A DNA stretch of 64,000 nucleotides from Antedon bifida. Taxonomy: Eukaryota > Echinodermata > Crinoidea > Comatulida > Antedonidae. The stretch covers positions 2,175,001 through 2,239,000 of the forward strand of contig OY727095.1 in assembly GCA_963402885.1 (NCBI GenBank), read 5' to 3'. Position 1 is the first letter of the stretch. Each line of letters begins with the position of its first letter. Position numbers and translations under genes: made by a program. Below the pieces are notes generated by a model that saw nothing but the letters and a program-made list of their open reading frames with translations, did not search any database and was not told the origin of the DNA. Positions 42,331 through 63,694 of the stretch are shown here, piece after piece.

Positions 42331-42479
42331 AGCTCTGTTTACACTATCAAACTAGTTTGACAAACAAATTGTGATGTGCATAAGTATGGTATGTGATATG
42401 CCCAAATGGTAGTGATATGACGTCATCGTGTCCATCACATTTTTTGTCACATAAAGTTTGATAGTGCAGACAGAGGTTA
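42331..42479. repeat. MITE of the CTCTGTCTACACTATCAAAC family
   Basis: GCTCTGTTTACACTATCAAA at the left and AAGTTTGATAGTGCAGACAG at the right form the inverted ends. The core has TGATATGACGTCATC with GCCCAAATGGTAG. Confidence 0.8.
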
Positions 42480-42639
42480 AGATTTTGTTGAAATGATTGA
42501 AAAGTTTAAAGTCTACAAAGGTAAATTCTTAATAATATATTTAAACTTATAGGCCTAAATCGAAAGAAGTAAAAGAAAACTCCGATTACCGAGAATTGGG
42601 CGACCTAAATAAAATCATAAATCGTGTTGCAACATTTCC

Positions 42640-44019: not shown

Positions 44020-44831
44020 CTAGCCTTGTCGAATTGGCTCCTCTTTCTTTTTAATAAACTGATGCCCCGACTGGTACTCTCCAATTTCACCGTTTTCTGC
44101 GAATCTGTAATTGGTCAAAAGTTTGACAATTCGTATCACTTCCGGGTCTGCCATACATTGAACGTTTACAATGTTGTAAATGTCGTCACGTTCACTTAGA
44201 CCTTGTTTGGTAACAAATTGGTAAGATTTGTAGCAGTTGACAATGTGCTGGATATACAGGTCTGTATCAGGTTGCTGCTTGAAAGTGGTTGTTGGAATGG
44301 ACTCTATGTCGTCTTCCATCAGTTTGGCATAGAGCTCTTTTACAGCCATTTCAAGTTCACGTTGCTATAAAATAATAATTCTTTGTTTATTAGTACTGTA
44401 CTAATGTACATATTCTCTGCGGCGCGCGGTGTCTGTTAAGGGGTGTGGAACAGATCTTGTCGCAGCCACAGATAAACCCTTCGATCTCTGGAGCTCAGAA
44501 TTCTGTTGGTTTCATGAGTAGAGTTACCGCTAACTCAGTTAGGTAAAAATAACCAACTTACCCGAATGGGTATACCGTATTCTGTATAGATTATATTATA
44601 TAGTATCAATTCCTACGATATCTATTACTTGTGTTGCTTATTAACACAAAAAAAACCGAAAAACACAAAATTAGGCCTAAATATTTTTTAATGTAATCAA
44701 TAACTCACCTCCAAGTCTTTGGAAACATCTCTAGTGCGGATTACACGAGCGGAACAGCAAGACGATAAACTCAGCAAGACAATGTTCAAAACAACAAGAT
44801 CAGCAACGACTTTCTTAAACACTGCCATCAT
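44020..44831 (-). CDS. Array copy 1: secreted two-cysteine protein, short tail
   Basis: Exon 1 is 44831-44709 and exon 2 is 44364-44020, with GT/AG borders in phase 0; 155 residues. Exon 1 gives a signal peptide (MMAVFKKVVADLVVLNIVLL, then SLSSCCSARVIRTRDV). Exon 2 starts QRELEMAVKELYAKL, then a short IPTTTFKQQPDTD linker, then the conserved core: IQHIVNCYKSYQFVTKQGLS to IYNIVNVQCMADPE, with two cysteines 25 residues apart. The tail is short and lysine-rich, ending IRQG. A second in-frame ATG (44828) fits the starts of the other copies. I know no family with this core. It is presumably secreted or extracellular; the function is unknown. The downstream flank (43540-43990) is duplicated below copy 2. 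Confidence 0.82.
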
Positions 44832-44900
44832 GTCTGGTCTCTCTCTCCTTTCAGCTGAACGACGCAAAAGCAACTAAAAAACTGTCTTCGGTGTCAGTTA

Positions 44901-44907
44901 TTATATA
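44901..44907 (-). promoter_or_regulatory. TATA box of array copy 1
   Basis: TATATAA on the minus strand, about 70 bp before the start codon. The surrounding CCTATATAATAACTGACA is nearly identical in front of copies 2 (48630-48636) and 6 (about 61139-61147), at the same distance. Confidence 0.7.
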
Positions 44908-45039
44908 GGCCAATGTGTCAAAAGTCATTGCAATAACACGTGATTGTATTCATAAAAGTATATTTTATAATAATGTTGTCTGGCTTTCTATAGGCCTAAT
45001 CAACTTAACAAAGAGTTAATATATTCGCTAACTTGATTA

Positions 45040-45085
45040 TTGACGCTCACACGCGATTTTTTTTTTCAGTAGACAGAAGTTCGAA
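45040..45085 (-). promoter_or_regulatory. Conserved upstream block, copy 1 (CACACGCGATTTTT)
   Basis: CACACGCGATTTTTTTTTTC followed by AGTAGACAGAAGTTCG lies about 225 bp upstream of copy 1. Close relatives occur upstream of copy 2 (48770-48810), copy 5 (57885-57935) and copy 6 (61292-61345). The latter two share CAGACGCGATTTTTCC and AGATTGGCCGAACAAAAAAG. Confidence 0.5.
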
Positions 45086-45449
45086 ATTTTCGTTTATGGT
45101 TTTAGAATAAGAGTTTTGAATAGTGAAAATGATCTTGTTAGGTGTACTACGAACTATCTGTTACGATCTTCAAATCTCTTCACTAAATGGGAGAAAATCT
45201 AATTTTAGTGTGATTTTCTGTTTGTTGTATACATGGAATGTTTTATTCTGAAATAACGTGATCAATCAATCAATATGTATGCATTCAACAATTAGGTTGT
45301 CTGATAAATTGTATGTTACGGAGACATATTATATTATTGTGACATACGTCTGTGACTGCTATAGAACAAATATTAGATTAAGTGATTTGAAAAACCTATT
45401 GTGAATAGGTAGTTTCTGAACAGATACGACTTGCTCTAATAAACAACTT

Positions 45450-45545
45450 CAACAGCAAGAAATCATGTAGCTGAGAACAAAAAGGTAAAAGAATCAATAA
45501 CCTTCCTAAGTCAGGTGGTATTTGATGTGGCTGGGGCTCGCTTTA
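45450..45545 (+). pseudogene. NFKBIL1 exon 2 / intron 2 fragment, duplicated
   Basis: CAAGAAATCATGTAGCTGAG and AAAAAGGTAAAAGAATCAAT match the end of NFKBIL1 exon 2 and its splice donor at 40290-40345. The match continues into GTGGTATTTGATGTGGCTGG, which in the real gene lies beyond the intronic MITE. The frame is not maintained. No other exons are attached, so it is a dead by-product of segmental duplication. Confidence 0.75.
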
Positions 45546-46450
45546 TAACCTTACATTTTAGATTATGTTAAAATATTCCTTTTTGGTATTAGCAGTCGAA
45601 AGGAGGCGTATTATATGGCCATACGTCACTGACTTTTATATCACTTATATATGATTTTAAAAGCCTATTGTATTGTATTTGGTATTTCAGTATATTATAT
45701 TAGCATACATCAGTGACTTTTACTGCATATCACAACTATTATACACAATTAGGTGATTTTAAAAGCCTATTGTATATGCCTACTTGGTTACGCAGTCGAA
45801 ACGAGGCAGTATATAATATATAGTATATTGCCATATGTCACAGACTGCTAAAGAATAACTTTTATATAAAGTTGCATGTTAAACAGGTACAGACTCGCTC
45901 TAATCAGGGAGTTGTAAACAAATAGTTTAATTATTTTACAACTCCCTTTAATTATAGACAAATACACTGATGATGTTTATTGAAAATTTTACCTAATCCA
46001 CCATTGGTTTAATCGAAACTCCAAACTGATGTTTGATCTACCGTTAAATGCTTATTTTTGCCCAACAAGAAGATTATGTATTGACATATCTCATTGATTG
46101 AGGCTATATGAGTTGTATGGTTTTTAAGCTTATTGTGAATAGGTCTATTATGTTTACTTTGCGTGGTACACATGTGACTCGCTCTAACAAAATAATTGTA
46201 CTGATGATGTTTTGCCAAAATTTTACCTAATGCACTGCTAATTGGTTTTTAAAACTTATTGTGAATAGGCTTATTGAGTTTGTGTGGTAAACATGTGACT
46301 CGCTCTAATGGTTAATGCTTTTAAATTTGTATAGCGCAAAATGCAAATAGTCTCTATGTACCTAATGCACTTATTTAATGAAAGCATTGCATGCTTATTG
46401 CTAAATGTTACTAAAAGCAAGGCAAACCATAACCTGACACTCACTACCAA
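45546..46450. other. Segmentally duplicated flank between copies 1 and 2
   Basis: Related block by block to 50480-51010 (ATTCCTTTTTGGTATTA, GAAAGGAGGCGTATTATATG, ACATCAGTGACTTTTACTGC, GTACAGACTCGCTCTAATCA). From 46058 it is also related to the NFKBIL1 3' flank at 41935-42290. There is no coding sequence. Confidence 0.65.
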
Positions 46451-46930
46451 ATACGGCTACTTTTTGCTATTTCTGGGAGCAGGGGTGACGTCACAATATC
46501 ATATATAGGTTATAGTCAAGACCTTTGAAATGACGCCAAACACGGCTATATTACGATGAAAATCGTTTGGCACCAAGGTACCATTTTCGAGACGTCATAT
46601 GGCTGCCGGTTTGAAATTAAAAAATCCGGCTCTATAGCTTTGAGGACATGTCCCTGTAGTATATGCCAAATCCCAGCTAAATACTTCAACGAATAAGGGA
46701 GGAGTAGTACTTTATAAATCGCACTTTTCGATCGGTACCATGTTTAGGACGTCATAATTCTGCATCCGGTTGAAGTACGTAAATTTTCTGTCTATAGCTT
46801 TGTTCACCTATTACCCTAGTATGCATGCCATGTTTTAGAGCCGTCAGACGACGCGTAAAGAACTAGTAGTTTTTGGCTCAATAGTGTCCCGATGGAAGAA
46901 GAAGAGGAGAAGATGAGCGAGTCCTAGAAA
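46451..46930. repeat. Unclassified inserted repeat
   Basis: A block of higher GC content with internally repeated phrases: CGGTACCATGTTTAGGACGT against AAGGTACCATTTTCGAGACG, and CTATAGCTTTG twice. It ends GAAGAAGAAGAGGAGAAGATG. It interrupts sequence that is continuous in the related segment near 42300-42330, which suggests an insertion. No inverted ends were identified. Confidence 0.5.
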
Positions 46931-46950
46931 GTATTTAACATACACATTTT

Positions 46951-47064
46951 ACAGCACTATCAAACTAAAAAAAAGCGTCATGTGCCAAATATGGTAGTAA
47001 TAATATGACATCATCATGTCCATTAGCACATCATGCAGTTTGATAGTTTAGACAGAGCTAGGGC
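46951..47064. repeat. MITE of the CTCTGTCTACACTATCAAAC family
   Basis: GCACTATCAAACTAAAAAAA at the left, CAGTTTGATAGTTTAGACAG at the right, core AAATATGGTAGTAATAATAT. Positioned as the 43083 copy is relative to array copy 1, so it was inherited through the segmental duplication. Confidence 0.7.
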
Positions 47065-47881
47065 TGCGTCACACTGGACGACCATACATTTTGCTTACAT
47101 CCTGTCGGTGGAATGTCCTGTCGACGAAATGACGGGTCGGAGAAATGTCCGGTCGGCGAATAGTTTGTCGGCAAAAGACGTTCGGCGGCCGGCAGTGCTC
47201 GTGTCGCGCACAACTTTTGCAGATGTAACCGCAACGGTTAAATGAGGGAAGAAGCCTTACTTTTCTCTGGTTAAATAAAGATAGATTGACCACACAAAAA
47301 ATAACAATAAACAAAAACAAAACAACGTATATTGCATCAACAATAGTTAATTATTTGCATCTTTTGTTATATAAGTTTAACCCTTACAACCGTTAAATGT
47401 TTTAATAGAAACTTAACATAAATCAAATTACCAAAAGCAGCAGTACAAACTGAGTATATACTTATAATTGACTTGAAATAATAAATCATGACAATGGATA
47501 GTGGTATCCAAGCAATAGGGCCATTAAGCGGATGTTGACCTCCCATAATATATATTTTGGGGTCAGTAATTGACCTTCCAGACCCATGTTTCTGATCCAA
47601 TGAGAATACATTTACAACAAAATAATAATGTAGTTGAATGCATAAAAAGGAGTTTGTGGCGGCTACACATAAACATACCTAAAACTAATTCGAAAGAAGC
47701 TCAAAGCAATTTCTACAAACTACTAGTATATAATGTAATAATTGAAAACACAAAAATGCGAAAATGAAATTGGGCTAGCCGTCGGTTGGTCGGTCGGTTG
47801 ATCGGTAAACACTAACTCAAATTTGCGCAGAAGAAGTTTACCGCAGAAGTTACGAAATTGTAGGAGCGTTTGGCTCCGGTT

Positions 47882-48569
47882 CTAACCGTTGTACTGGGGT
47901 CGGAACGACTGGGGTCGGAGGAGGATTATCCGTTGCCACAGATCGTCCGATATCTTCCTTTTCGAAAAATTATGACCTTTACCACTTTGATCATTTTCTG
48001 ACAATCTGTAAGTGGTTAAGAGTTTGACAATTTGTGCCACTGTCGGGTCTGCCATACATTGGACGTTTACAATGTTGTAGATGTCATCACGTTCACTTAG
48101 ACCTTGTTCGGTAACAAATTGGTATGATTTGTAGCAGTTGACAATGTGCTGGATATACAAGTCTGTATCAGGTTGCTGCTTGGAAGTGGTTGTTGGAATG
48201 GACACTGTAGTGGTCTGTATGTCGTTTCTTTCTTCCTTGAATTTGGCATATAGCTCTTTTACAGCCATGTCAAGTTCACGTTCCTATAAAATAATAATAA
48301 TACTTCATTCACTAGACACGTATTCAATAATATATCTACTTAATAATTCTAACTTAAACAACCTATCGACAAAACAATGACAACACATAATAGAAACAGA
48401 AATAAAATAAATAAAAAAAGAATATTTTTTAATGTAATTAATAACTCACCTCCAAGTCTTTGGAAACATCTCTAGTGCGGATTACACGAGCGGAACAGCA
48501 AGACGATAAACTCAGCAAGACAATGTTCAAAACAACAAGTTCAGCAACGACTCTCTTATAAATTGCCAT
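47882..48569 (-). CDS. Array copy 2: secreted two-cysteine protein, short tail
   Basis: Exon 1 is 48569-48450 and exon 2 is 48283-47882, phase 0; 173 residues. The signal peptide MAIYKRVVAELVVLNIVLLS is followed by SCCSARVIRTRDVSKDLE, nearly the copy 1 sequence. Exon 2 begins ERELDMAVKELYAKFKEERN, then the Thr-rich IQTTTVSIPTTTSKQQP, the two-cysteine core, and a tail SENDQSGKGHNFSKRKISDD ending QYNG. That tail recurs in copy 5. A TATATAA at 48630-48636 precedes it by about 65 bp. The intron is only 166 bp, the shortest of the array. Function unknown. Confidence 0.82.
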
Positions 48570-48629
48570 GATTACTCTCTCCTACTAAACGACGCAAAGG
48601 CAACTGAAACCTTGTCTTGTTGTCAGTTG

Positions 48630-48636
48630 TTATATA
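48630..48636 (-). promoter_or_regulatory. TATA box of array copy 2
   Basis: Minus-strand TATATAA within CCTATATAACAACTGACA, 61-67 bp upstream of the start codon; the same arrangement as copy 1. Confidence 0.68.
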
Positions 48637-49014
48637 GGCCTATTGGTGTCAACAGACAATACAGTGAAACGTGATGGTATTCATAAAGTATATTTTACAA
48701 TAATGTTGTCTGGCTTTCTATAATTAACTTAACAAAAGAGTTAATATATTCGCTAACTTTATTATTGACGCTCACACGCGATTTTTTTTTTCAGTAGACA
48801 AAAGTTCGACATTTCCGATTGGTCACATTTTATCATTTTCTTTTTAAAAAAAATATCTACTGCATACATTCATTCTGCGCAAGTGTAAAGGGCGGAACAG
48901 GGAGTTGATAACTAAAAACTCCCTGCTAGGAAGATAACAATCAATGATAGACCTAGTATATATATGCATTTTTCTACAGAAAAGAATAGAAACATTTTTC
49001 AACCTAGAACTTTT

Positions 49015-49160
49015 GATAACCATTTATGCTGTCCAATCAGATGACGTCATGATTAATAAGCGCAATTATAATATTGTGAATATACGATTTTATTGTTTTT
49101 ATTAACTATTATTATTATTATGATTTTATAAATATCATTTTATCAGCATAAATGGTTATC
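49015..49160. repeat. MITE with GATAACCATTTATGCTG ends
   Basis: GATAACCATTTATGCTG at the left is mirrored exactly by CAGCATAAATGGTTATC at the right; CAATCAGATGACGTCATGAT follows the left end. It belongs with the copy at 2792-2957 and is the better preserved of the two. Confidence 0.85.
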
Positions 49161-49410
49161 CTATAATAAAAATAAATCTTTTCGATTTCTTTTCGTTTTT
49201 TTGTAAGAAAAATGTATGTTGATCTACTTATCGTCGATAGCTATAGGCCTATCTCATGTTTTAGAATTTGTATCTTTTAGATACGTTTGCTATCTTTCCC
49301 TACATTAAGCAGCATTTCAGTTATCAATGTTTAAAGTAATTATATGACAGCTCTAGTGTACCAGCATGATCCAAAACAATTCAAAATCAACTGTTTAATT
49401 TTTAATTTTT

Positions 49411-49475
49411 TTCTTGCATCCTGATAAGTTCCAGCAAAAATTTGGTGAGAGATTATAAATGGAGTTTTAAAGTGA
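49411..49475 (+). pseudogene. NFKBIL1 exon 4 fragment, duplicated
   Basis: The plus strand reads LHPDKFQQKFGERL and then a stop, matching the NFKBIL1 C-terminal signature at 41578-41625 with a few substitutions. Beyond the stop, GGAGTTTTAAAG matches the later CGGATTTTAAAACAAG after a small deletion. It is an isolated, non-functional piece. Confidence 0.85.
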
Positions 49476-49547
49476 AATATTGTTACTGTATCTATTCATG
49501 GTGTAATCTATGGCACGCCAGGACGGACATAAGCGAGGTCAACTTGA

Positions 49548-49548
49548 C

Positions 49549-49584
<36 letters not shown>

Positions 49585-49890
49585 GTTCATTCTTATATAG
49601 CGCATATAAGCAAGCTCTCAATGCGCTGAACATTATCACCCCAGTCATTTCCTGATCAAACACCTATGGAAACATACTCCCATATATGCAGCTAGTAATC
49701 AGCGCAAAGTTGTGTCTTGATCTAACCGGGTACCCATTTATACACCTGGGTGGAGAGAGGCAAACGTAAGTAAAGTATCTTGCCTAAGGATACAAGCAAT
49801 GCGGCGAGAGTTGGATTCGAACCTCGGTCTAACGATCAGTAGTCGAACGTCCAACACACAGCGCCACACGCCCAAGACGGACATAGTTAT
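49548..49890. mobile_element. SINE-like element with (AAT)n head
   Basis: (AATAAT)n leads into TTCTTATATAGCGCATATAA, then CTCAATGCGCTG, CGGGTACCCATTTATACACC, TGGGTGGAGAGAGGCAA and GGATTCGAACCTCGG. This ordered set belongs to a widespread marine-invertebrate SINE-like repeat. The flanks CACGCCAGGACGGACATAA (about 49513) and CAAGACGGACATAGTTATGT suggest that the host sequence was partly duplicated on insertion. Confidence 0.65.
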
Positions 49891-50145
49891 GTCCGTCTTG
49901 GTGTGCCATAGTAATCACACTGTAAACACTATTAAATGTTTAGAGGTATACTATAACAACTCAGTGAGAATGTTACGTCTATGGTTTTAGAATAAAAGTT
50001 TTGAATGGTGAAAAAAATCTTGTTATGTGCACTACAAACTATCTGTTACGGTCTTCAAATCTCTTCACTAAATGGGAGATAATCTAATTTTAGTGTGATT
50101 TTCTGTTTGTTGTATACATGGAATGTTTTATTCTGAAATAACGTG

Positions 50146-50146
<1 letters not shown>

Positions 50147-50183
<37 letters not shown>

Positions 50184-50184
50184 G
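50147..50184. repeat. (ATCA)n microsatellite
   Basis: About nine copies of ATCA in a segment that has only two to three copies at the equivalent place near 45260, so it expanded after the duplication. Confidence 0.9.
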
Positions 50185-50401
50185 TTGTCGTTTGAAGGCT
50201 TTTGTATTTCCCATTTGGTAATGTATGGATGCATTCAACAATTAGGTTGTCTGATAAATTGTATGTTACGGAGACATAATTATATTATTGTGGCATACGT
50301 CTGGGACTGCAGCTATAGAACAAATATTATATTAAGTGATTTTAAAAACCTATTGTGAATAGGTAGTTTCTGAACAGATATACGACTTGCTCTAATAAAC
50401 A

Positions 50402-50490
50402 ACTACAAGATCAAGAAGGCATGTAGCTGAAACTAAAAGGGTAACAAAGAACCAGGTGGTGTTTGATGTGGGTGGATTTCGCTTTAACCT
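50402..50490 (+). pseudogene. NFKBIL1 exon 2 / intron 2 fragment, second duplicate
   Basis: GGCATGTAGCTGAAACTAAA and GGGTAACAAAGAACCAGG match the end of NFKBIL1 exon 2 and its donor. They then join directly to GTGGTGTTTGATGTGGGTGG, which lies on the far side of the intronic MITE in the real gene. Non-coding relic. Confidence 0.75.
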
Positions 50491-51098
50491 TACATTTTAG
50501 ATTATGTTAGTTAAAATATTCCTTTTTTGGTATTAACAGTCGAAAGGAGGCGTATTATATGGCATTGACTTTTATATCACAACTTTTATATATGATTTTA
50601 AAAGCCTATTGTATTGTTTGGTATTTCAGTATATTATTAGCATACATCAGTGACTTTTACTGCATATCACAACTATTATACAAAATTAAGTGAGTTTAAA
50701 AGCCTATTGTATATGCCTACTTGGTTACGCAGTCGAAACGAGGCAGTATATAATATATAGTATATTGCCATAATATGTCACAGACTGCTAAAGAATAACT
50801 TTTATATAAAGTTGCATGTTAAACAGGTACAGACTCGCTCTAATCAGGGAGTTGTCAAAAAATACTTTTACAACTTCCTTTACAACTCCAGCTCTAATTA
50901 TAGACAAATACACTGATGATGTGTACTGAAAATGTTACCTAATCCACCATTGATTTAATCTAAACTCCAAACTGATGTTTGATCTGCCGTTAAATGCTTA
51001 TTTTTGTCCAACAAACAATAAACTGAAACTACATTTTACTCAATACAAAGTATTTCAAAATTTACTTACGCATACTACGTATTTTGAATAAAATTCGT

Positions 51099-51193
51099 TG
51101 CATGTCCCGCTGTGTGTTTCGTTGAATGTCCCGCTGTGTGTTTCGTTGAATGTCCCGCTGTGTGTTTCGTTGAATGTCCCGCTGTGTGTTTTA
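51099..51193. repeat. Minisatellite, 24 bp unit, four copies
   Basis: GTTGAATGTCCCGCTGTGTG plus TTTC is repeated four times almost without change. The open frame across it (NVPLCVSL repeats) is a by-product. Confidence 0.92.
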
Positions 51194-51590
51194 TTAGATA
51201 AATATTCTGCTGTTCCACACCCACCAGACGACGAGACGTTACGTCACCTGTCGTGCAGCCTCCACACGCGAGCGCTATGTTAAAACTCGTGTACGTTGAT
51301 AATACAGGTGAGGTGTTTCAACAAGGACATATTGACTTAGTTTCACCAACAAAAGTAAACACAAATTATGGAACACAAATAATGATTGAATATTTATTTA
51401 TAAAGAAACACCCTTAACAATATCATATTAATGGTATTCTCAAGTAAAGTAAATCGTAAATTGTTATTAGATTTTGTTTAACAAGGAACATTTATAATGT
51501 CGACAGTAATAATTCAAAATTAGTTAGAAGCCCCCAAATACCCTCATAATGAAAACATCTAAAATACCGGTAGGCCTAATCATCACCAGT

Positions 51591-53008
51591 TTACCCCCGA
51601 CCAAAGTCCTCGCCTGGTCTTTGTTTCTTTATCATCATCATCATCATCATTATTCTCTCAAGGAGTAATTCACTCACGGCTTCCTCGTCGTCGTTTTCGT
51701 CCTCATCTAAGGGAGATTCAGAAGCTTCTTGTTTCTGGGTCGTAACGGCAACCTTGTTGGTAGTCGTTGGTGGTTCGGGTGCAGCTGTAGTCGGTATATA
51801 TTCGTCGCCTATGTTTGGTTCTTTTTGTTCATCTTCATCAAAATATTCTTCGTATTCACTACCACTGTCTTCATCGAAGAAAAACGTGTCATATAAGTAA
51901 TACGCGGTTAAGAGTTTGACAAGGCGTGCCACTTCCGGGTCCATCATACATTGTACGTTTACAATGTTGTAGATGTCGTCACGTTCACTTAGACCTTGTT
52001 CAGTAACAAATTGGTAAGATTTGTAGCAGTTGACAATGTGCTGGATATACAAGTCTGCATCAGGTTGCTGCTTGGATGTGGTTGTTGGAATGGACACTGT
52101 GGTCTGTATGTCGTTCCTTCCTTCCTTAAACTTGGCATAGAGTTCTTTTACCACCATGTCAAGTTCACGTTTCTATAAAGATTATATTTCATATTTTGTA
52201 ATAGATAACATAACAAAAAAATATGCAGAAAATAATGTAAATATATATATGAGATTCTGTAATTGTTAAAAAAAGATAAAAACAAAAGATAAAAAAAAAT
52301 TAAATTATATTTCATCTTATTTTTTCAATTAAAAAACAAATCGTTATAAAAATAGTGATCTTCCGCATTTAGAAATACGGTAGTTATTTAGAAGAAAACA
52401 AAGAAAATGAATTTGTTAATGTGTGACAAAAAAGAAGCAAAAAGTTAAAATAGTATTATTTATCAAATACGTAGACCATCAGAATAAATGTACAGAATAG
52501 CTATATTCATTTTATCTTTAGTCTAAAAATAAAAGATGATATACTAAATTATTAATATTATTTAAAAGGTATACATTTTGTACTGTATGTATAATATAAT
52601 ACCATTGAGAAATGTTTCTCGTAGAATGGAAAAACGATAGACTACTGTAGATTTTCATCTACTACTGTACATTTTTCCATGGTAATATATATCACGCCAT
52701 CACAGCAGGTCGTGTTACAGATTGAAAGCGCACAATGATCGGATAATGTAAGCCTAAACAATCATGGAACAAATAATACTTTACAAAAGTACACATTTGC
52801 GGTAGAGTGACTAATTTGCATAACTACGTGAGTTGTTACTCAGCAAGAGTGCAAACACTAAACTTTCTTAAAATGCATTAAAACTTACCTGTAGCTCTTC
52901 ACCAACATCTCTAGTGTTGATTACACGACCGACACAGCACGACGATAAACTTAGTAAAACAACGTTTAAAATGGCAAGATCTACGACGATTCTCCTAAGC
53001 ACAGCCAT
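51591..53008 (-). CDS. Array copy 3: secreted two-cysteine protein, long acidic tail
   Basis: Exon 1 is 53008-52889 and exon 2 is 52172-51591, phase 0; 233 residues. Signal peptide MAVLRRIVVDLAILNVVLLS, then SSCCVGRVINTRDVGEELQ. Exon 2: KRELDMVVKELYAKF, a Thr-rich linker, the conserved core (IQHIVNCYKSYQFVTEQGLS, then VNVQCMMDPEVARLVKLL), then a long acidic segment (FDEDSGSEYEEYFDEDEQKE), a Thr/Pro-rich stretch (PTTAAPEPPTTTNK) that could carry O-glycans, a second acidic patch, and a helix-like end (EAVSELLLERIMMM) closing in GRG. The run of six Met comes from a (CAT)n microsatellite. An upstream in-frame Met (MIVI) is possible, but the MAV start agrees with the paralogs. Function unknown. 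Confidence 0.82.
52190..52888. other. Intron of array copy 3
   Basis: AT-rich, 716 bp in all, with no repeat I can name and no sign of an internal exon. Confidence 0.6.
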
Positions 53009-53014
53009 GATCAC

Positions 53015-54224
53015 GATCATTCCGAATAGAAAATCAACTGATTTCTTTTCGACTAAAATTTGACTTTGATTGTCAATTGAACGGTTCAGCAAGCAAATCA
53101 CACAATACGTGTTCGACAGGTATTTTTATTTCTTTCTTTGTAATTGTTGACGTAATGGGGCTAAACAATAGAAATGTTTCGATGTTTCAAATTCGATGTT
53201 TGACCTTCGTAAAAGTGCGTTGGATCATGACACCATGGTTCAGATGCTGTTCAGAGCTTTTTTCCATAGATTATTCTACATCCGATGGATTGTTCTTAGA
53301 GATCCGTTGCTTTATTCAAGATCCGACGCTTGATGGTATCGTCGAAAGATCCGACCCCTCGTCGATACAACACGTGTATGTGGAAAATATGCCAATAAAG
53401 AACAATATATTGTTTAAGCCGTGTATGGCGAAATCAATAAGTTGATCTTATAAAGTTTGCGGTACACCACCATTGTATACTTCACTCCTGAGGACGATCA
53501 AAGTATTTTGATGCCCTTAATCCATTGATGAAAACGTCGAGAAACCCATCAGTCCTCCTTTTAGAACTACACATACGTGGCGCAGCCTACTGCAAACTTG
53601 ATGTCAACGTAAACAACAATTACCACAAATATGGGTTAATTTTTTTTTATTGAAAAAACATTAGTATTCTCAATTATTCATTGTATTTTATTATGTAATA
53701 TTAGGGTTTGTTCAGTAATGAGTTTAAAAGACAAAAGATGCATGCGTTTAGGCTTAGTTAACCGGGTAAGTTGGTTCATTTTACAAAATTGTGCCCATAA
53801 ACCCGACTTAGATCGGCAAGTAGTTTAATCTGAACAGGCCTAATAATATTGATGAAATATGGGTATTGGCAGTGTCTAAAATGACGTTTACAGTTAGTAG
53901 ACCCCAAATACCCTTTAAATGTTTTCTTATGTTGACTTGTAATTATACGACCAGGTTTTACCCACAAAATAAACCCCTTCTTTCCCAACAATCTAAATTA
54001 AATTCCCTTCTCCCCCCAAGGAATAATTCTGATAACACTAGGCTAAATACCAAATTACCTCTACCTAGATGTTGTGTGTCTCTTTTGTCCAGAGTTTAAA
54101 CTATTTTTATGGTGCAGTAATTTAAACAAGAGTTTTTAAACTAAAATAATTCTAATATATTTCGCAATGCAGCCTTCGGACTGCCATGTTATGTATATAA
54201 ATACCATTATGAAAAAAAAAACTT
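53015..54224. other. Spacer between array copies 3 and 4
   Basis: The first ~160 bp (CAACTGATTTCTTTTCGAC through GACAGGTATTTTTATTTC) is repeated upstream of copy 4 (55240-55345) and in part copies 5 and 7, so it probably holds the promoter of this subtype. 53250-53400 contains spaced GATCCGA words like those at 55425-55680. The rest is unremarkable. Confidence 0.5.
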
Positions 54225-55216
54225 TCACCCTCTTATGTGTTTTTTATTCATCATCATTAGTATTCTTTCAAGGAGCAATTCACGCACTGCATCTTCGTCA
54301 TTGTTTTCTTCATTCAGGGGCGATTCAGAGGTTTTCTGTTGACGGGTCGTCATTGGGTTTGATGTCGTAGTTGGTTCGGGTGCAACTGTCGTCCGTATCT
54401 CTTCTTCACTGCTGCTGTCCTCCTCACTGCTGCTGTCTTCCTCACTGCTACTACTGTCACTGCCTGGCACATCAATGTTTTCATAATAATAATACGCGGT
54501 TAAGAGTTTGACAAGGCGTGCCACTTCCGGGTCCACCATACATTGGACGTTTACAATGTTGTAGATGTCGTCACGTTCACTTAGACCTTGTTCAGTAACA
54601 AATTGGTAAGATTTATAGCAGTTGACAATGTGCTGGATATACAGGTCTGCATCAGGTTGCTGCTTGGATGTGGTTGTTGGAATGGACACTGTAGTGGTCT
54701 GTATGTCGTTTCTTTCTTCCATCAATTTGGCATAGAGCTCTTTTACCACCATGTCAAGTTCACGATTCTATGAAAATTATATGGCATAATAATTATTTAA
54801 TTTATTAAATCTATCTTTTTACGTTTATGACAAAACAAATAATGCATAGCAGAGTATAGTTACACGCACATCACGGTATCCTCCTAATGATAGGGCGTCT
54901 CAGGCACAATCGGATTATAGTAGGCTTAAACGTGGAAAAGGTATATAATATGAAAATTATAAATAAAATGGAACGGAACCAGTTTCGGTTGGATGGCTAC
55001 AGATTTGCATACTATTCTAATCGTGTCAGTGTTACTCAGCGGTCAAATAAAAATATTATAATAGTAAACATACTGTATGTAATGTAATTCACTCACCTCC
55101 AACTCTTCACCAACCTCTCTAGTGTTGATTACACGACCGACACAGCACGACGATAAACTTAGTAAAACAACGTTTAAAATGGCAAGATCTACGACGATTC
55201 TCCTTAGCACAGCCAT
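54225..55216 (-). CDS. Array copy 4: secreted two-cysteine protein, Ser/Glu-repeat tail
   Basis: Exon 1 is 55216-55097 and exon 2 is 54767-54225, phase 0; 220 residues. The signal peptide is the same as copy 3 except for the last residues (INTREVGEELE). The core is IQHIVNCYKSYQFVTEQGLS to VNVQCMVDPEVARLV. The tail begins YYYYENIDVPGSDSSSSEED and contains three tandem SSSEED-type units (minus strand 54470-54418), dense in S-x-E sites of the kind phosphorylated in secreted proteins by FAM20C-type kinases or by CK2. It then has a Thr-rich stretch, SPLNEENNDEDAVRELLLER and a basic end, NKKHIRG. The closing SPLNEEN...LLLERI block is shared with copies 3 and 7. Function unknown. Confidence 0.83.
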
Positions 55217-55419
55217 GGTCACGATCCTTCTGACAACAAAATCAACTGATTTGTTTTAAATTTGACTTCGATTGTCAATTGAACGCTTCAGCAAACAAAT
55301 CACAATACGTGGTCGACAGGTATTTTTATTTCTTTCTTTGTAATTGGTGACGTAGACGGGCATAACAATTGAAATGTTTCGCTGGTCAAATTCTATGTTT
55401 GAACCCTTGTAAGTGCGAG

Positions 55420-55690
55420 AGATGTTCATTGTGTTTTCTCAATATCCGATTATTGTTCTTAGAGATCCATGTTAATTGTTTCTTCGAGATCCAATGTTTT
55501 ATACTTTCTTGAGATCCGATGTTTCATGGTTACATCTCGAGATTCCATTTTCCACAATTTATTTCTTCGATTCGATGCTTCGTGGCTGATTTAATTCGAT
55601 TGCTGTTAGAGATCCGATGTTCCATAATTTCTTTGAGATCCGATTGTTCCATGTTTTCTTTGACAGTCTTTCACAGATAAAGGGCTTTAC
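55420..55690. repeat. Degenerate tandem repeat, GAGATCCGATGTT units, upstream of copy 4
   Basis: About eight diverged units of 28-35 bp, each with a GA[G/T]ATCCGATGTT-like centre and T-rich spacer. A shorter set lies at the matching place upstream of copy 3 (53270-53355), so the repeat predates the split of copies 3 and 4. Confidence 0.7.
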
Positions 55691-56189
55691 ACACATACAA
55701 GAAAATCCACATCAATGACCCTTTTCCTTTTTTATTTCCAACTTTTAATTAGAAATACAACAAAAATACAATTATAAAAGTAGTAAAAGTATAAAAAAGG
55801 AGAAACAATTCTCTAGTTAAACGTTGTTTTCACGACAATTTAAAATCTTAACTTTTCCTAAATAGAAACTTGAAATATGAAGCAACAATACATGGATAAA
55901 CTTGAGTCTGTAGTTATTCTATTTTTTATGTTTAGTATATTCCAGTGGCGTTTCGATTTTTGTCAATAAACTACAGTACTTATGATTCAGCTCGAAGTAC
56001 CGTATGGTACGTATGAAACGCCATATGTGTCAAAATGTTTGCCCATTTTAAGTCGAATCACGGTCTACAACCTAAACTATTTAAGACTACTTAACAAAAC
56101 AGTGTGCATAGGCTATAAAATGGGAAAAATCACAGAAAAAGAAGTTAACCACAGAAGTTACGAAATTGTAGGAGCGTTGGGGTCCGTTT

Positions 56190-57485
56190 CTAACCATTGT
56201 TGGAGAGAAGCCATGGCGGTAGCCACGTGGAAAAATCGTCCGACATCTTCCTTTTCGAAAAATTATGACCTTTACCACTTTGATCATTTTCTAATAATCT
56301 GTAAGTGGTTAAGAGTTTGACAATTCGTGCCACTTCCGGGTCTGCCATACATTGGACGTTTACAATGTTGTAGATGTCGTCACGTTCACTTAGACCTTGT
56401 TCAGTAACAAATTGGTGAGATTTGTAGCAGTTGACAATGTGCTGGATATACAGGTCTGTATCAGGTTGCTGCTTGGAAGTGATTGTTGGAATGGACACTG
56501 TAGTGGTCTGTATGTCGTTTCTTTCTTCCATCAATTTGGCATAGAGCTCTTTTACCACCATGTCAAGTTCACGTTCCTATAAAGTGACAATATGTTAATA
56601 TTATCAAAGCTCTAAATGGAGCTGAGACATGAAAAACCAACGAGCATGATAATCAGAAACGTGATGAACTAGTATTCAAATGTCTACAGATGATAGTTAA
56701 AATAAGTTGGTCATTATGTTATATAAGGATAATAAGCCTAATATACTAAAAATCACCAACATGAAAAGAATAAGCAAAGAGACAAAGATTAAAAGATGGA
56801 AATGGATTGGCTTGTAATGAGAATGGAAACCAATATTCATTGTTTGACAGCAATGAAATGGAAATCAGAAGGCAGAAGAAAGAGAAAGGGGGAGAGAGAG
56901 AGATGGAGGACACAGAACGAAGCAAAGCAAATCGGCGGCGATAGAACCAACTGGAGATGTGTCACTACAGACTTATGGGCTACGAGGCCCGAAGAGGATA
57001 ATACAGTACAGAATACAGAACCGTAATTACGTAGTCATAACATCGGCACGGGTTCGAGGCTCACTCACTCCATGGTTCTGGTGGTAGAACGAGTCTTCTC
57101 GGATAAGGACTATAAACCGTAGGTCCAGTGTACACATCTAGCTCGTGTGCACTTTAAAGAACCTAGTACATCTTTCGAGACGAGTAAGGGGTTACCCCGG
57201 TGTATTAGTACATCACAGCCACTGATCACCAACTGGGCCCTCTGGGAGACCAGTCTTTGACTGAAGAGGTTACCCAGTATAAATATATATTTCAATCAAT
57301 CGATAGGTACGTTAAAGTAATATTATATTGTAATTCACAAAACAAAACACAAACAAACTTACATTAAATTCTTCAGCAACTGCATCTCTAGTGTTGATTA
57401 CACGACCGACACAGCACGACGATAAACTTAGTAAAACAACGTTTAAAATGACAAGATCTGCGACGATTCTCCTAAGCACAGCCAT
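56190..57485 (-). CDS. Array copy 5: secreted two-cysteine protein, apparent recombinant
   Basis: Exon 1 is 57485-57363 and exon 2 is 56576-56190, phase 0; 169 residues. Exon 1 is of the copy 3/4/7 type (MAVLRRIVADLVILNVVLLS, CCVGRVINTRDAVAEEF). Exon 2 starts with the same type (ERELDMVVKELYAKL). After the core its tail is that of copy 2 (LENDQSGKGHNFSKRKMSDD), and the 3' flank (AGAAGTTACGAAATTGTAGG) also matches copy 2. It ends LSNNG. The 786 bp intron holds LINE and SINE remains. A distal upstream block of the copy 6 kind lies at 57885. The mixture suggests unequal crossing-over or gene conversion. Function unknown. Confidence 0.82.
56610..57010 (+). mobile_element. LINE 3' remnant in the intron of copy 5
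   Basis: Broken plus-strand frames read NGAETWKTNEHD, then WIGLVMRMETN, MKWKSEGRRKRKGE and RTNWRCVTTDLWATRPE. This is the usual ending of non-LTR retrotransposon ORF2 (WIGHVLRM, then RRKRGRP, then W). Only about 400 bp of the 3' end remains, with stops and frameshifts. It lies antisense to the host gene. Confidence 0.75.
57011..57305 (+). mobile_element. SINE in the intron of copy 5
   Basis: GGGTTCGAGGCTCACTCACT (tRNA B-box-like) precedes GAACGAGTCTTCTCGGATAA, GGTCCAGTGTACACATCTAG, CTCGTGTGCACTTTAAAGAA and GGGGTTACCCCGGTGTATTA, the ordered body of a tRNA-derived SINE found across echinoderms and other deuterostomes. It ends in ATTTCAATCAATCG. It directly follows the LINE remnant, whose tail it may have borrowed. 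Confidence 0.75.
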
Positions 57486-57539
57486 GATCGTTTCATATAA
57501 CTTTCATTGTTGAACAAGCTTAGCACAATCAATGACAAG

Positions 57540-60215
57540 TATTTATTTAATTATGTCTATGATTCGGTTGAGTGCCAGCCTAACAGAGTAAATATTTTTA
57601 CATTTTTATGTCATTTGTCAATTCTACAATAGGCCTATTACGTTTGACCTTCGCGCAAAGAAAAATCGTTTAGCATTATTATGTCGTTTAGTATTCTTCT
57701 CACGTACAAGTTAATTCATGTATAGGCCTACTTTATTTATAACAACGATGGTGCATCATCATCTGGCCTTATCCGCATCAACAGTGAATAACGGATACAC
57801 GTTAACATCGTATTTTTATCCCGTAACCGTTCATATAAATTTTTTATGTGCATAATGTTACTCGCAAAACTTATCGACAGTACACCCAGACGCGATTTTT
57901 CCCCAGTAAATAGAAGATTGGCCGAACAAAAAAGTGTTTTTGCTTATAAGGCCTATATAAACGATTAGTGCGCATGCTCAATGCGACAATTCTGTCCAGA
58001 ATTATCACTGGTATGTTTAATTCAATTTTATTCATATAAAATCTAGGTAATTTTGCAATAGAAAAATGTTTGAGCTCAGTGACGAACTCTTCATTCTGCG
58101 CATGTCTACTTTCTACATTTACGGTCTGCTATTTTAGCATTACTGTTTTGACTTGTAGTGTGACGCACAATGACTTAATTTGCATATTTTGTGTTTCTTT
58201 TTTAATCAGACCGGTTTTTTTTTTGTCGCGTGCATAGCTCACTATGTCGGTCGGACGGTTGGTTGGTCGGTCGGTCGGTAAACACTAACTCAAATTTGCG
58301 CACGCGACTGCAGCCATGTACATGGCCTTGTTTTTGTTAAAGATGGTTAGATTCAGGCAGACAGACGAATAAAAGTGAACGGCAACAAAATATAATAATC
58401 GTATTCGGTTCGCAAATTGTTTATTACTCGAAGTCTCAGGCAGAAATCATGAATACTGATTGGCTACATAAATTTATTAAATTCGTTTATTCATTTGTTG
58501 TGGATGAGTGATGTCATGTTTTTGTGTTTAATACATTCTTGTACAACATTCTTCATGGTTTAAGAGATAATTGGGGTCAAAGTTGTCAAATGGTAGCCAT
58601 TTTGATTTTATGCAAATTGGATCATTTATGATGGACAGATCAGGATTGATTTTGATATAATTATAATAATATATTTATATATATTTAAGCATGATTTAGT
58701 ACAGTATGTGTCAAACCGTGCAACACGTGAGCGATGCATTATGGGACGGAATTGGGAGCAATAGCGCCGCCATCAGTATAAGTATGTTTTACAACAATAG
58801 GTAAAGGTAAAGTCGAAACCTAAGCTAATGCTAACGGCCGCGGTGCCCATCTCCATTTCTTTAGCGTTTGGGCCAGACTCCACTAAGTGTGTATGCTTGT
58901 GGGGGGTACGCCACTCCTCCCGCACAAACGAGTCTGATTTACCTTCCCAGTACTTTTTACATACAGTTTTTACAGCTAACTATGTTGGTCGGTCGGTGGG
59001 TCGGTCGGTAAACGCTAACATATATTAAACTATACAAAGAGCCAAAAATGAGGTTAATTAGATTCATTTAAACAAGGACTCTATCACATTTAAATATCCG
59101 AAATAGAGTCACTCAGCTTCAAATAAATAATGTTTTTAACATTTAAAAAAATATATGTCCGGGTAGAACATACCCATTATACTAGGACACACACATTTTG
59201 TTGTAAGCAGGAAACACTTGCCAAGTTTCAAAAACATTTAAAAATGCAATTCAAAAATGGAACGAACCGCCAAATGAAATTAAAATCAACACCTTCAAAT
59301 ATACTTTTAAATGGCATGTAAAACGAATGTTAATGGAGGATCAAATTAATATTTTATACTGTCTTATCAATTTTCTATAATTTGTATCAGTCCTTTTTAT
59401 GTGTATTTTATCCATTTTTAACTCGTGGATTCTTTTTCTAAGGCATATGTTTTAATTGTGTTTTTATAAATTATATTTTTTTTCACTCAATTTTCATATT
59501 TTGAACGTCTTAGGACCCCTTTGAAAACAAACTTTATAGTTTAAAGAGTTATCGTGATTTTCTTCGTATTTTTGTATTGTTTTTATGAGAATTTCGAATA
59601 AAGTCAACAAATCAATCAAAGGCTCGGCACAACTTTTGTAGTAAGGATTAAAATATAGATTGACAAAAAATATCTACTATTATAACAGGTATGTATATTT
59701 ATTTGTATCTTCCAAATACAATAAAACAGTTATAGCCTATTACAACATTGTTTAAATTACCAAAATAACCAAAACAGTAAAAAAAAAGCGAAACTAATTC
59801 AATGATTTAAAGTTGTCTTCACGAAGAAGAAACCAAACAACAGTACAAACTGAGTATATATATAATATTTATAAAACTAAAATTTTACAAAATAAAGCTG
59901 ATTTATTCTCATAATTTATTCTGTGGGGTATATACGGACCTTCCATATCCCAGTTTCCGTTTCTTAGTGAAAATACAAGAACAAAATACAGTAGTAAAAA
60001 ACATGAAAAAGAAGAAACATTAGTTATTGTCTTTACGCGCCAGATTACATGAAATGTTTAGACAACACGTTTAAAGTCTACAAAACATGCGTCTTAAAGG
60101 AACCGAAAATAAATCAAAAGAAACCAAGGGCAGTACAAACTGAGTACAATATACTGTGAATAACGGAATAATTGAAATCACAAGTAGCAACAATGAAATA
60201 CGGGCTCTATAATTG
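57540..60215. other. Spacer between array copies 5 and 6
   Basis: Contains a conserved upstream block (57885-57990), a GGTCGGTCGG-type repeat with AAACACTAACTCAAATTTGC at 58240-58330 (also at 40745-40830, 47780-47825 and 58985-59020), a probable LINE 3' end (59130-59620), and at 59690-60190 a flank related to those below copies 1 and 2. No other gene is seen. Confidence 0.55.
59130..59620 (+). mobile_element. Probable LINE 3' end (CR1-like)
   Basis: The phrases IQKWNEPPNEIKINTF and WHVKRMLM resemble the last residues of CR1/Jockey ORF2 (WN-LP-EI, then K--L). They are followed by a T-rich 3' region ending near AACAAATCAATCAAAGG. The evidence is short. Confidence 0.35.
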
Positions 60216-61076
60216 CTAGCCGTACACTACTAGTCCGTTAGCCTTCGGCCACCACCTTGAATATATCTTCTTTTTCTTCAAAGCTTTTCGTACAATTTCA
60301 TCTTTTTCTGTGAATCTGTTAGCGGTCAGAAATTTGACAAGGCGTGCCACTTTCGGGTCTGTATCAGGTTGCTGCTGCTGCTCGGAAGTGGTTGTTGGAA
60401 TGGACTCTATGTCGTTTCTTTCTTCCATCAGTGCGGCATAGAGCTCTTTTACAGCCATGACAAGTTCACGGTCCTATGAAAATTATATTTTATCATTAGA
60501 CTTAAGCCTGTTCAGCCTCCTTTTTGTTGCTCATACGCAGAGGGAATTATGAAAAGTTATTTTCGTGGTTTTACGATAGGCAACCTCATTGCCATGGCTT
60601 TACGTTCGGTGGAAGCGTCTTTTTCATTCTAGCAGATTTTCTCAATGTTATACCTTCACAATTAATTTTAAAATGTCAAATTTGTTACAAATGTATAGAC
60701 CAATTTTTACCGAGATGAACAATTCCATTATAATTATAAAATTGAAGTTGAAAATGAGCGCGTTTCAGTTTGGAACATATTTTCTCTAGGCCAAGTTAAA
60801 TCATCGTATCCTGTTATTATACTGTACTATGGTATAAACCATGTGTATCATTTCCTACGATATGCAATTACTTATGTTCTCTACTAACATCTTACAAAAA
60901 TAAGGTAAAACCTAAATATTCTTAAAATGTAATAAATAAAACCTTACCTCAAAGTCACCATCATTATCAGCATCTCTAGTGTCGATTACACGAGCGGCAT
61001 AGCAAGACGATAAACTCAGCAAGACAATGTTCAAAATAACAAGATCAGCAACGACTCTCTTAAACACTGCCATCAT
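60216..61076 (-). CDS. Array copy 6: shortened paralog lacking the cysteine core
   Basis: Exon 1 is 61076-60948 and exon 2 is 60473-60216, phase 0; 128 residues. The signal peptide MMAVFKRVVADLVILNIVLL is followed by SLSSCYAARVIDTRDADNDG; the second Cys of the usual CC pair is Tyr. Exon 2: DRELVMAVKELYAALMEERN, linker IPTTTSEQQQQPDTD, and then directly PKVARLVKFLTANRF. The 38 residues between PDTD and P(K/E)VAR, with both conserved cysteines, are absent. The reading frame stays open to a basic tail ending VVYG. A six-base CAGACC occurs at both edges of the missing piece in the other copies. TATA-like TATATATAA lies about 65 bp upstream. It could be a new functional form or a decaying gene. 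Confidence 0.75.
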
Positions 61077-61138
61077 GTCTCTCTCTCCTTTTAGCTAAAC
61101 GACGCAAAAGCAACTAAAAACTGTCTTGCCGTCAGTTA

Positions 61139-61147
61139 TTATATATA
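61139..61147 (-). promoter_or_regulatory. TATA box of array copy 6
   Basis: Minus-strand TATATATAA followed by TAACTGACGGCAAGACAG, as in copies 1 and 2, 63-71 bp before the start codon. This copy keeps its promoter despite losing the core. Confidence 0.65.
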
Positions 61148-61149
61148 GC

Positions 61150-62002
61150 TACTGGTGTCAACAGCCCTTACAATCACGCGATGGTATTCACAAATGTATT
61201 TTATAATAATTTCTATAGCTTCCTGCAATTAAGTCAATTAACTATATTGTACAAAAGAGCTACTGTAATGTTACTCGCAAAAGTTATCGTCACACAGACG
61301 CGATTTTTCCCCCAGTAAATAGAAGATTGGCCGAACAAAAAAGTGTTTCGCTTTGCTTATAAGACATATATACACGATCAGTGCGCATGCTCAATTGCAA
61401 AAATTCTGTCTATATACAATTTAGGTAATTTTGCAACAGAAAAATGTGTTAGCTCAGGGAAGAACTTCTGCGCATGTCTACTTTCTATATTTTACGATCT
61501 TTTTTTGTAGAAGGTGGTTATTTCCAGACAGGCCGTTGTACGCAACAGACGAATAACAATTAACGACACCAAATATACATCGCGTCCGGTTCTTTCTTTT
61601 ATCAAATCTTTTAGAAGTACGTTTGGCGATTTACCACCATTACGTCCAGATCTTGTATGATGGACGCGTATAGAAAACGGTCTAATGCAAATGCATCTTA
61701 AAACGAAAGTGTAAAGCAATCGAATGAAAAAAAAAACAATGCTATAAATAACGTTTACTTTATTTTCATCCAATGCTATTCAATTATAAAGTATCTTTTC
61801 TGAGGATGGTTTGAATTTGTATCAAAACAACATCACCAAGTTTCAAACAAATCAGTTACTAACCCAACAACAGAAAGAAATTTATTTAGGCCTATAGTTA
61901 GTTTTATAATTATATTAGTTCACATAAATACCCATCAATTTATAATATTTAGGCCTCGTTTTCTGGTTTTATAACTAAAAAAATGGTAGTCAGTGTCGTA
62001 GT
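61150..62002. other. Spacer between array copies 6 and 7
   Basis: Holds the conserved upstream block of copy 6 (61292-61410, with AGATTGGCCGAACAAAAAAG and GTGCGCATGCTCAAT shared with 57900-57990). The minus-strand frame at 61492-61773 has no recognisable content. Confidence 0.5.
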
Positions 62003-63694
62003 TTAACCCTTTCTTTGTTTTTTTAATATATTTAGTATACGTTCAAGCTGTAACTCTCGTACTAAGTCTTCGCCATTGTTCTCTTCATTTAGGGGAGAGG
62101 ATGTAGTTGGCACATTGGCATCTTGCTCTTCAGTTGTTTCTTGTTTCAGGGTTGTAGGGTCAACCTTTCTGGTAGTGGTATTCTCAGAAGTTGGTTCTAT
62201 TGTTGGTTGTGCAGCTGTTGTCTTTACCTCTTCTTGGTAAACATCAGTGTTTATCTGTTCGCCTTCAGTGTCTTCATCAAAAATGCTAAACAGCCATTCC
62301 ACCACAGCGTAATCGCTATACCCAATTTCTTTATTGAGTTTGTAATTATAATAAGCGGTTAAAACTTTGACAAATCGTTCCACGGTGGGGTCTGCCATGC
62401 ATTGTACGTTTACGATGTTATAGATGTTGTCACGTTCACTTAGACCTTGTTCGGTAATAAATCGATAAGATTTGTAGCAATTGACAATGTGCTGGATATA
62501 GACGGCGTTGTCAACCGGTTTTTGGGCATTGGTTGTCGATGGCGCTGTAGTTTGAATGGATTCAACGGTGGTGGTGATTTCAACGTCTTCGTCGTTGCTG
62601 ATGAGCGACATCAATTTATCAAGTAGCCATTTTACCTTAAAGTCGTCAAGTTCACGTTCCTGTAATAGATTAAAAAATACAAAACAAATTAAGTTTGATT
62701 TCATACGTCCCTTTAATGTTTTAAATGCGTTGCTGGAACTATAGGCATGTAGCAAACAAAAGAAAATTATTCGATTTTCAATTATTCTATAAATCCACGT
62801 CCTTAAGCTCTGTCTACACTATCAAACTTTATGTGACACAAAAATGTGATTCCCTATTATATGGACATGATGATGTCATATCACTACCATATTTGGGAAT
62901 ATCACTACCATGGGCACATCAAACTTTTGTTGTCAAACTAGTTTGATAGTGACGTAGACAGAGCAGCTTTAGCAACTTTCAATATTATTCTAGGTAATAC
63001 AACCTCCTATTTGATAGTGACGTAGACAGAGCAGCTTTAAGCTCTGTCTACACTATCAAACTAGTTTGACAAAAAAGTGTGATGTGCCCAAATATGGTAG
63101 TGATATGCCTAAATATGGTAGTGCTATGACATCATCATGTCCATATATGGGCACATCACATTTTTTTGTCACATAAAGTTTGATAATGTAGACAGAGCTT
63201 TAGCAACATTCAATATTATTCTAGGTGATACAACCTCCTGGTATCTAGGCCCTCTCACTACAACGAACGTCCAAAGTAATACCAGACTATAATCAATCAC
63301 CGTGTTTAAGCAATACGAGATAGACTACCTACACAATTCTCAAATTAATGTGTTTCTAATATTCCAATACATTGTGAAATCAGACTATTTTAAAATATTT
63401 CAACCAAGTGTCATTTTGGTCTGGAAATGGTATGTCATATGGTTATTTCAAGGCGTTAACTCCCTCTAGTTATATATCTCATTATTAGCATAGATATATT
63501 ATAGTTTACTATATCTCTATGCTATTAGTTATTACTATTCTTATACAAATTGAAAAAATGTGAAAACTCACCAAAAGCTGATCGCCTGCAACATCTCTAG
63601 TGTTGATTACACGACCGACACAGCACGGCGATAAACTTAGTAAAACAACGTTTAAAATGGCAAGATCTACGACGATTCTCCTAAGCACAGCCAT
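62003..63694 (-). CDS. Array copy 7: secreted two-cysteine protein, longest and most diverged
   Basis: Exon 1 is 63694-63572 and exon 2 is 62659-62003, phase 0; 259 residues. Signal peptide MAVLRRIVVDLAILNVVLLS, then LSPCCVGRVINTRDVAGDQL. Exon 2 begins ERELDDFKVKWLLDKLMSLI, differing from the MxVKELYAK start of the others. It then has the Thr-rich TTTVESIQTTAPSTTNAQ, the core (IQHIVNCYKSYRFITEQGLS, then VNVQCMADPTVERFVKVL), a longer acidic segment (FDEDTEGEQINTD), Thr-rich repeats and SPLNEENNGEDLVRELQLER, ending LKKQRKG. The 912 bp intron holds two MITEs. Divergence in the first and middle parts, while the core stays fixed, points to selection on the core. Function unknown. Confidence 0.83.
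62802..62969. repeat. MITE of the CTCTGTCTACACTATCAAAC family (intron of copy 7)
   Basis: AAGCTCTGTCTACACTATCA at the left and TGATAGTGACGTAGACAGAG at the right; inside are GTGACACAAAAATGTGATTC and a core in which ATGATGATGTCATATC is inverted relative to other copies. Confidence 0.88.
63032..63202. repeat. MITE of the CTCTGTCTACACTATCAAAC family, second in the same intron
   Basis: AAGCTCTGTCTACACTATCA to AAAGTTTGATAATGTAGACA. It follows a short repeat of the previous element's right end and its flank: CAATATTATTCTAGGTAATA at 62982 and CAATATTATTCTAGGTGATA at 63211. The host flank was therefore duplicated around it. Confidence 0.88.

What the first reader, a model, noticed from the sequence alone, without database searches (positions are those of the whole stretch)
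44020..63694. Tandem array of seven paralogous genes for an unrecognised secreted protein family
Seven same-strand two-exon genes lie in 20 kb, each with a signal-peptide exon joined in phase 0 to an exon carrying a fixed core (NCYKSYxF to VNVQCM, C-X25-C). The core is nearly unchanged while flanks and tails vary in length, charge and sequence. That is the pattern of a young, expanding extracellular family such as defence factors, reproductive or matrix proteins, or peptide precursors. I match it to no named family.
Basis: partly seen in the sequence, partly recalled or inferred. Interest (0 to 1): 0.88.

Follow-up and report, generated by a model that had tools for sequence, protein, structure and literature searches.

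The report
Tandem secreted genes with varied tails
Seven neighbouring copies of a small animal gene appear to encode secreted proteins that mostly share one nearly unchanging helical piece but carry very different tails; the tools at hand recognised no known family, and what the proteins do is still unknown.

Summary
The array is real, on the minus strand. Seven two-exon genes (A to G, high to low coordinate) join a leader exon (120-126 nt) in phase 0, at GT/AG sites, to one second exon. Six of seven carry the C-X25-C core. Pooled core dN/dS is about 0.11. Tails are acidic, 88-115 aa (A, D, E), or short and neutral to basic, 28-41 aa (B, C, F, G). Exon 1 is up to 99% and exon 2 up to 95.5% identical between copies, while 14 of 21 intron pairs align no better than shuffled sequence; exon histories conflict for A and for C against F. 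All seven tails end in Gly before the stop, against 3 of 196 other ORFs of at least 60 aa: perhaps an amidation signal. Pfam, NCBIfam, PDB, viral contigs and prokaryote genomes gave no credible relative; no animal proteome could be searched, so 'unrecognised' holds only for these. Best reading: a secreted effector family with a constant helical core and fast-changing tails, laid out like sea-urchin SpTransformer genes but not a member. Function is inferred.

The parts
63572..63694 (-). Gene A exon 1, signal peptide
   Evidence: ATG to donor TTG|GTGAGT
62003..62659 (-). Gene A exon 2, core + acidic 115-aa tail, ends KG-stop; core 62396-62482
   Evidence: acceptor TTACAG
60948..61073 (-). Gene B exon 1, signal peptide
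   Evidence: donor GAG|GTAAGG
60216..60473 (-). Gene B exon 2, core deleted in frame (38 aa, at a CAGAC repeat), basic 33-aa tail ending YG-stop
57363..57485 (-). Gene C exon 1, signal peptide (A/D/E type)
   Evidence: donor AAT|GTAAGT
56190..56576 (-). Gene C exon 2, core 56346-56432, short F-like tail ending NG-stop
55097..55216 (-). Gene D exon 1, signal peptide
   Evidence: donor GAG|GTGAGT
54225..54767 (-). Gene D exon 2, core 54537-54623, Ser/Glu-repeat acidic tail ending RG-stop
52889..53008 (-). Gene E exon 1, signal peptide
   Evidence: donor CAG|GTAAGT
51591..52172 (-). Gene E exon 2, core 51945-52031, Asp/Glu/Tyr acidic tail ending RG-stop
48450..48569 (-). Gene F exon 1, signal peptide
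   Evidence: donor GAG|GTGAGT
47882..48283 (-). Gene F exon 2, core 48053-48139, short basic tail ending NG-stop
44709..44828 (-). Gene G exon 1, signal peptide
   Evidence: donor GAG|GTGAGT
44020..44364 (-). Gene G exon 2, core 44152-44238, short tail ending QG-stop

Best explanation
A tandem family of small secreted animal proteins built as leader | helical N-arm | Thr-rich linker | three-helix core with one cysteine pair | variable tail. Shown from sequence: gene anatomy, core conservation, tail classes, constant terminal Gly, conflicting exon histories. Inferred: the two core cysteines form a disulfide; after leader removal the core keeps one job (binding a fixed partner or self-assembly) while the exposed tails, long acidic or short neutral to basic, carry the varying contact surface; the last Gly becomes a C-terminal amide; unequal crossing-over and exon-wise conversion keep leader and core alike while tails are remade by indels, repeat slippage and exchange. 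I judge an extracellular immune effector the likeliest use, by analogy with the two-exon clustered SpTransformer genes of sea urchins.
For: Seven models with consistent splice sites. Pooled dN/dS: core 0.11 (15 pairs, B has no core); leader 0.37, N-arm 0.51, post-core 0.71 (21 pairs each). AlphaFold2 on the core: helices 39-59, 66-75, 79-94, ten-residue pLDDT means 62-82 there. Exon 1 up to 99.1% and exon 2 up to 95.5% identical while 14 of 21 intron pairs score 21-27, inside the 20-27 of 20 shuffles of one pair. Synonymous differences conflict between exons in 4 of 8 pairs tested: A/E 0 of 20 in the leader against 23 of 49 in exon 2, p=5e-5; A/C 5e-5; A/D 3e-4; C/F 9.5 of 20 against 6 of 50, p=0.001. 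Gly before stop in 7 of 7, against 3 of 196 other ORFs of at least 60 aa. No downstream exon shared by the seven.
Against: No expression, proteomic or functional data. Cys-Cys distance was not measured; the models are weak (mean pLDDT 67.3 core, 49.5 whole exon). Positive selection on tails is not shown: the alignable C/F tails give Nd 13.5/79.5 and Sd 4.5/19.5; only the 17-column pro segment has pooled dN/dS above 1 (1.49), from few sites. In 4 of 8 pairs (C/E, C/D, F/G, D/E) exons do not conflict (p 0.09 to 1). Seven of 21 intron pairs score above the shuffles, B/G (63) and F/G (53) clearly. The start of C's second exon is as close to D (95.5%) as to F (95.0%). Terminal Gly may be largely inherited: I read about three separate stop contexts, not seven. 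Nothing specific ties the family to immunity.
Confidence: 0.35

Rival explanations
1. Peptide precursors: leader, N-arm and core are pro-region and the C-terminal piece after a basic cluster is released as an amidated peptide, cationic in B and F.
For: Gly before stop in 7 of 7 and a K/R pair within the last 25 residues or so in 7 of 7; tails of B (+7) and F (+4) are cationic beside an anionic mature N-part (-8 and -4).
Against: The most constrained part is the core, not the would-be peptides, which differ between genes; after the last basic pair only 1 (A), 4 (D) or 7 (G) residues remain, Gly included.
Confidence: 0.22
2. Matrix, adhesive or mineral-binding proteins, with acidic paralogues (D Ser-x-Glu repeats, E Asp/Glu/Tyr) and basic paralogues meeting through the shared core.
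For: Net tail charge -12, -13, -21 in A, D, E against +7, +1, +4, 0 in B, C, F, G; six S-x-E sites in D; Thr-rich linkers.
Against: Acidic composition differs in kind between A, D and E; tails are short in four of seven.
Confidence: 0.2
3. Reproductive (gamete, egg-coat or seminal) proteins diversified by sexual selection.
For: Tandem, modular, fast-changing tails on a conserved scaffold fit such families (general knowledge; no call).
Confidence: 0.15
4. The Gly-stop is not a real C-terminus but a splice donor to a third exon, so the tails are mis-modelled.
For: In five of seven (A, C, D, E, F) a GT lies at the Gly-stop, e.g. E GG|GTAAAC; F has no AATAAA within 1500 nt after the stop.
Against: B and G have GGC and no GT; the other five match the donor consensus at 5-6 of 9 against 7-9 for exon 1; implied phases differ (A, C, F against D, E); among 195 downstream ORFs of at least 20 aa no segment is shared by the seven; six of seven have AATAAA 116-532 nt after the stop.
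Confidence: 0.07

Closest known systems
SpTransformer (Sp185/333) immune genes of sea urchins
   Same: Small clustered genes, exon 1 leader, exon 2 the mature protein, diverse second exon, repeats, suspected recombination (12 passages of PMC5491942 seen).
   Different: No RGD, no Gly-rich or His-rich region here (Gly 2.1-3.9%, His 0-2.1% of mature chains); a conserved Cys-pair helical core instead; no GA repeat array found beside the genes.
Amidated neuropeptide / antimicrobial peptide precursors (general class, recalled)
   Same: Leader, C-terminal Gly, basic clusters near the end.
   Different: The conserved part is the core, not the C-terminal piece; I recognise no known peptide.

Membership tests
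SpTransformer (Sp185/333) | two exons, leader exon then mature-protein exon, tight cluster | tested here: met
   feature from PMC5491942 passages
SpTransformer (Sp185/333) | Gly-rich region, RGD and His-rich region in the mature protein (PMC5491942) | tested here: not met
   RGD in 0 of 7; Gly 2.1-3.9%, His 0-2.1%
SpTransformer (Sp185/333) | GA short tandem repeats flanking each gene (PMC5491942) | tested here: not met
   no GA array among the 33 tandem-repeat rows at score 50 or more
Amidated peptide precursors | signal peptide | tested here: inconclusive
   7 of 7 hydrophobic leaders by eye; no predictor was run
Amidated peptide precursors | Gly amide donor at the C-terminus or before a basic site | tested here: met
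   Gly-stop in 7 of 7; amidation itself not tested
Amidated peptide precursors | conserved bioactive peptide released at basic sites | tested here: not met
   C-terminal pieces differ between genes
any Pfam or NCBIfam family | match above curated cut-off | tested here: not met
   7 second exons, no hit at cut-off; the leader exons were not scanned
any animal protein family outside these libraries | homologue in animal proteomes | not testable with these tools
   prokaryote, viral, plasmid, PDB and model libraries only; no genome held for the window

The most novel reading that the evidence does not exclude
A new extracellular family in which a nearly invariant helical disulfide core is fitted, by exon- and segment-wise recombination, with interchangeable acidic or basic tails that always end in an amidation signal, so that oppositely charged paralogues sharing one core can assemble together; B is a natural core-less, tail-only version.
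Probability: 0.15. Interest if true: 0.7.

Novelty: new member of a known kind. Interest (0 to 1): 0.42.

Why it matters
If the family is confined to one animal lineage, it would be a compact natural case of a conserved scaffold with replaceable tails, in which the roles of core, tail and terminal Gly can be tested apart. It would also add a cysteine-core counterpart to the two-exon immune gene clusters of echinoderms. If it turns out to be a known uncharacterised animal family, it is ordinary.

Tried and rejected
Known families: Pfam gave only sub-threshold hits for 2 of 7 second exons (CCD97-like_C 17 bits, E 0.0067, cut-off 27.1; CHASE6_C 15.2 bits, E 0.034, cut-off 27); NCBIfam five hits on three proteins, E 0.014-0.12, far below cut-off. 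PDB profile search: 4 matches with E up to 10, three of them one transaldolase helix of about 25 residues at E 0.021-0.029, the fourth RIO2 at 0.49; judged chance. Foldseek on the core model: 7 matches, best E 1.9. Viral contigs: 60 pattern matches, 0 confirmed. GTDB contigs: 52 pattern matches, 0 confirmed. Rfam 0, tRNA 0.

Third exon at the Gly-stop: tested and disfavoured. Downstream matches at E up to 0.01 are between pairs only (F/G, E/F, A/B, and short ones B/F, C/F, D/E), in several frames, so they look like DNA duplication or repeats. Promoter: a TATA-like motif within 200 nt of the ATG in B, F and G only. Positive selection on tails: not shown; pooled tail dN/dS 0.46 rests on unreliable alignment. 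Organism: TAGGCCTA occurs 23 times against 0.37 expected; that this marks echinoderm or hemichordate DNA is recalled, and a paper search did not show it (20 of 182 listed). Neuropeptide papers (12 of 62 listed) were not opened.

Limits of counts: dN/dS pools non-independent pairs; the six pairs with B drop out of the core count. The Fisher tests are 8 of 21 pairs, chosen, on rounded counts; 4 of 8 are below 0.002. The intron null is 20 single-base shuffles of one pair (D/E). The Gly-stop pattern was noticed after the fact; of all 8389 stop triplets in both strands 2.6% follow GGN.

Full report
Observation. The region 44020-63694 holds seven minus-strand genes, lettered A (63.7 kb) to G (44.0 kb). 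tblastn within the window finds seven leader exons and seven second exons and nothing else significant. Each leader exon runs from ATG to a good donor, each second exon starts after TAG or CAG, and all are in phase 0. No copy lies below 44 kb in the window; an ankyrin exon is at 39.3 kb. On the other side gene A's ATG is 306 bases from the window end, so the array may continue. Splicing is predicted, not observed.

Core. Six of seven second exons carry the C-X25-C core. Compared with F and G, gene B lacks 38 codons between two CAGAC repeats, in frame, removing both core cysteines but keeping the leader, N-arm, post-core part and a basic tail. Among D, E and F the 37-codon core has no amino-acid change but 3 to 5 synonymous changes per pair; pooled core dN/dS is 0.11, leader 0.37, N-arm 0.51, post-core 0.71, the short pro segment 1.49 from few sites, and tail 0.46 on an unreliable alignment.

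Tails. A, D and E have acidic tails of 115, 88 and 102 aa (net -12, -13, -21); B, C, F and G have tails of 33, 36, 41 and 28 aa (net +7, +1, +4, 0). All seven end in Gly just before the stop, with codons GGT, GGC or GGG and stops TAA, TAG or TGA. In the whole window 10 of 203 stop-to-stop ORFs of at least 60 aa end in Gly; seven of these are the array exons and three are others. By my reading of the alignment the stop contexts fall into about three groups (A/D/E, C/F, B/G), so the independent events are fewer than seven. A hidden splice donor there is disfavoured but not excluded.

History. Leaders fall into A, C, D, E against B, F, G. By tail class the second exons fall into A, D, E against B, C, F, G. 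C joins a leader of the first type to an F-like tail and 3' flank (90% over 51 bases), although the start of its second exon is as close to D (95.5%) as to F (95.0%). A joins a leader 97-99% identical to C, D and E to a second exon only 83-85% alike where it aligns. Synonymous counts show the conflict in 4 of 8 pairs tested (A/C, A/D, A/E, C/F) and not in C/D, C/E, D/E, F/G. Intron alignments score inside the shuffled range in 14 of 21 pairs, slightly above it in five, and clearly above it in B/G and F/G. F and G also share 3' flanks (96% over 380 bases) and longer blocks, a more recent segmental copy. Exon-wise conversion or shuffling, with quick intron turnover, explains this best; it is inferred.

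Structure. AlphaFold2 on six core sequences gives an N helix and three core helices (mean pLDDT 67.3, pTM 0.53). On the whole second exon of E the stretch 100-167 is below pLDDT 50, with a low-confidence helix at 161-183 (mean 49.5). Foldseek against PDB with the core model: 7 matches with E up to 10, none at 0.001 or below.

Known or not. No credible family, structure or relative was found in the libraries available, and no PMC paper held contains any of three core hexapeptides. Three further text searches listed 2, 7 and 1 papers, none about such a family by title (listings only). Animal proteomes could not be searched. The nearest architecture is SpTransformer (passages of PMC5491942), which fails on its protein features. 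Function therefore rests on analogy; I put an immune effector first, and peptide precursor, matrix or reproductive roles close behind.

Noticed in passing
3076-3909 +: Rhodopsin-type GPCR exon, Pfam 7tm_1 E 2.3e-27; the 4 PDB sequences at E 1e-20 or better are neuromedin-K and substance-K (tachykinin) receptors.
   Followed up: partly
37234-37986 -: mTERF gene; PDB match 3m66, mTERF domain-containing protein 1, E 1.4e-28.
   Followed up: partly
39347-41703 +: Ankyrin exon (Ank_2 E 1.6e-9) followed by a charged ORF with no Pfam hit at cut-off; resembles NFKBIL1 (name recalled, not tested).
   Followed up: partly
33176-35106 +: Gag-like ORF (PNMA, E 2.8e-9) and a further ORF that looks retroelement-like by eye but has no Pfam hit.
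   Followed up: no
whole window: TAGGCCTA occurs 23 times against 0.37 expected by shuffling.
   Followed up: partly
62805-63203: Inverted repeat of about 400 bases (81% identity), foldback-like, with similar sequence at 42325-42481.
   Followed up: no
6803-7210: 19-base minisatellite, about 22 copies.
   Followed up: no
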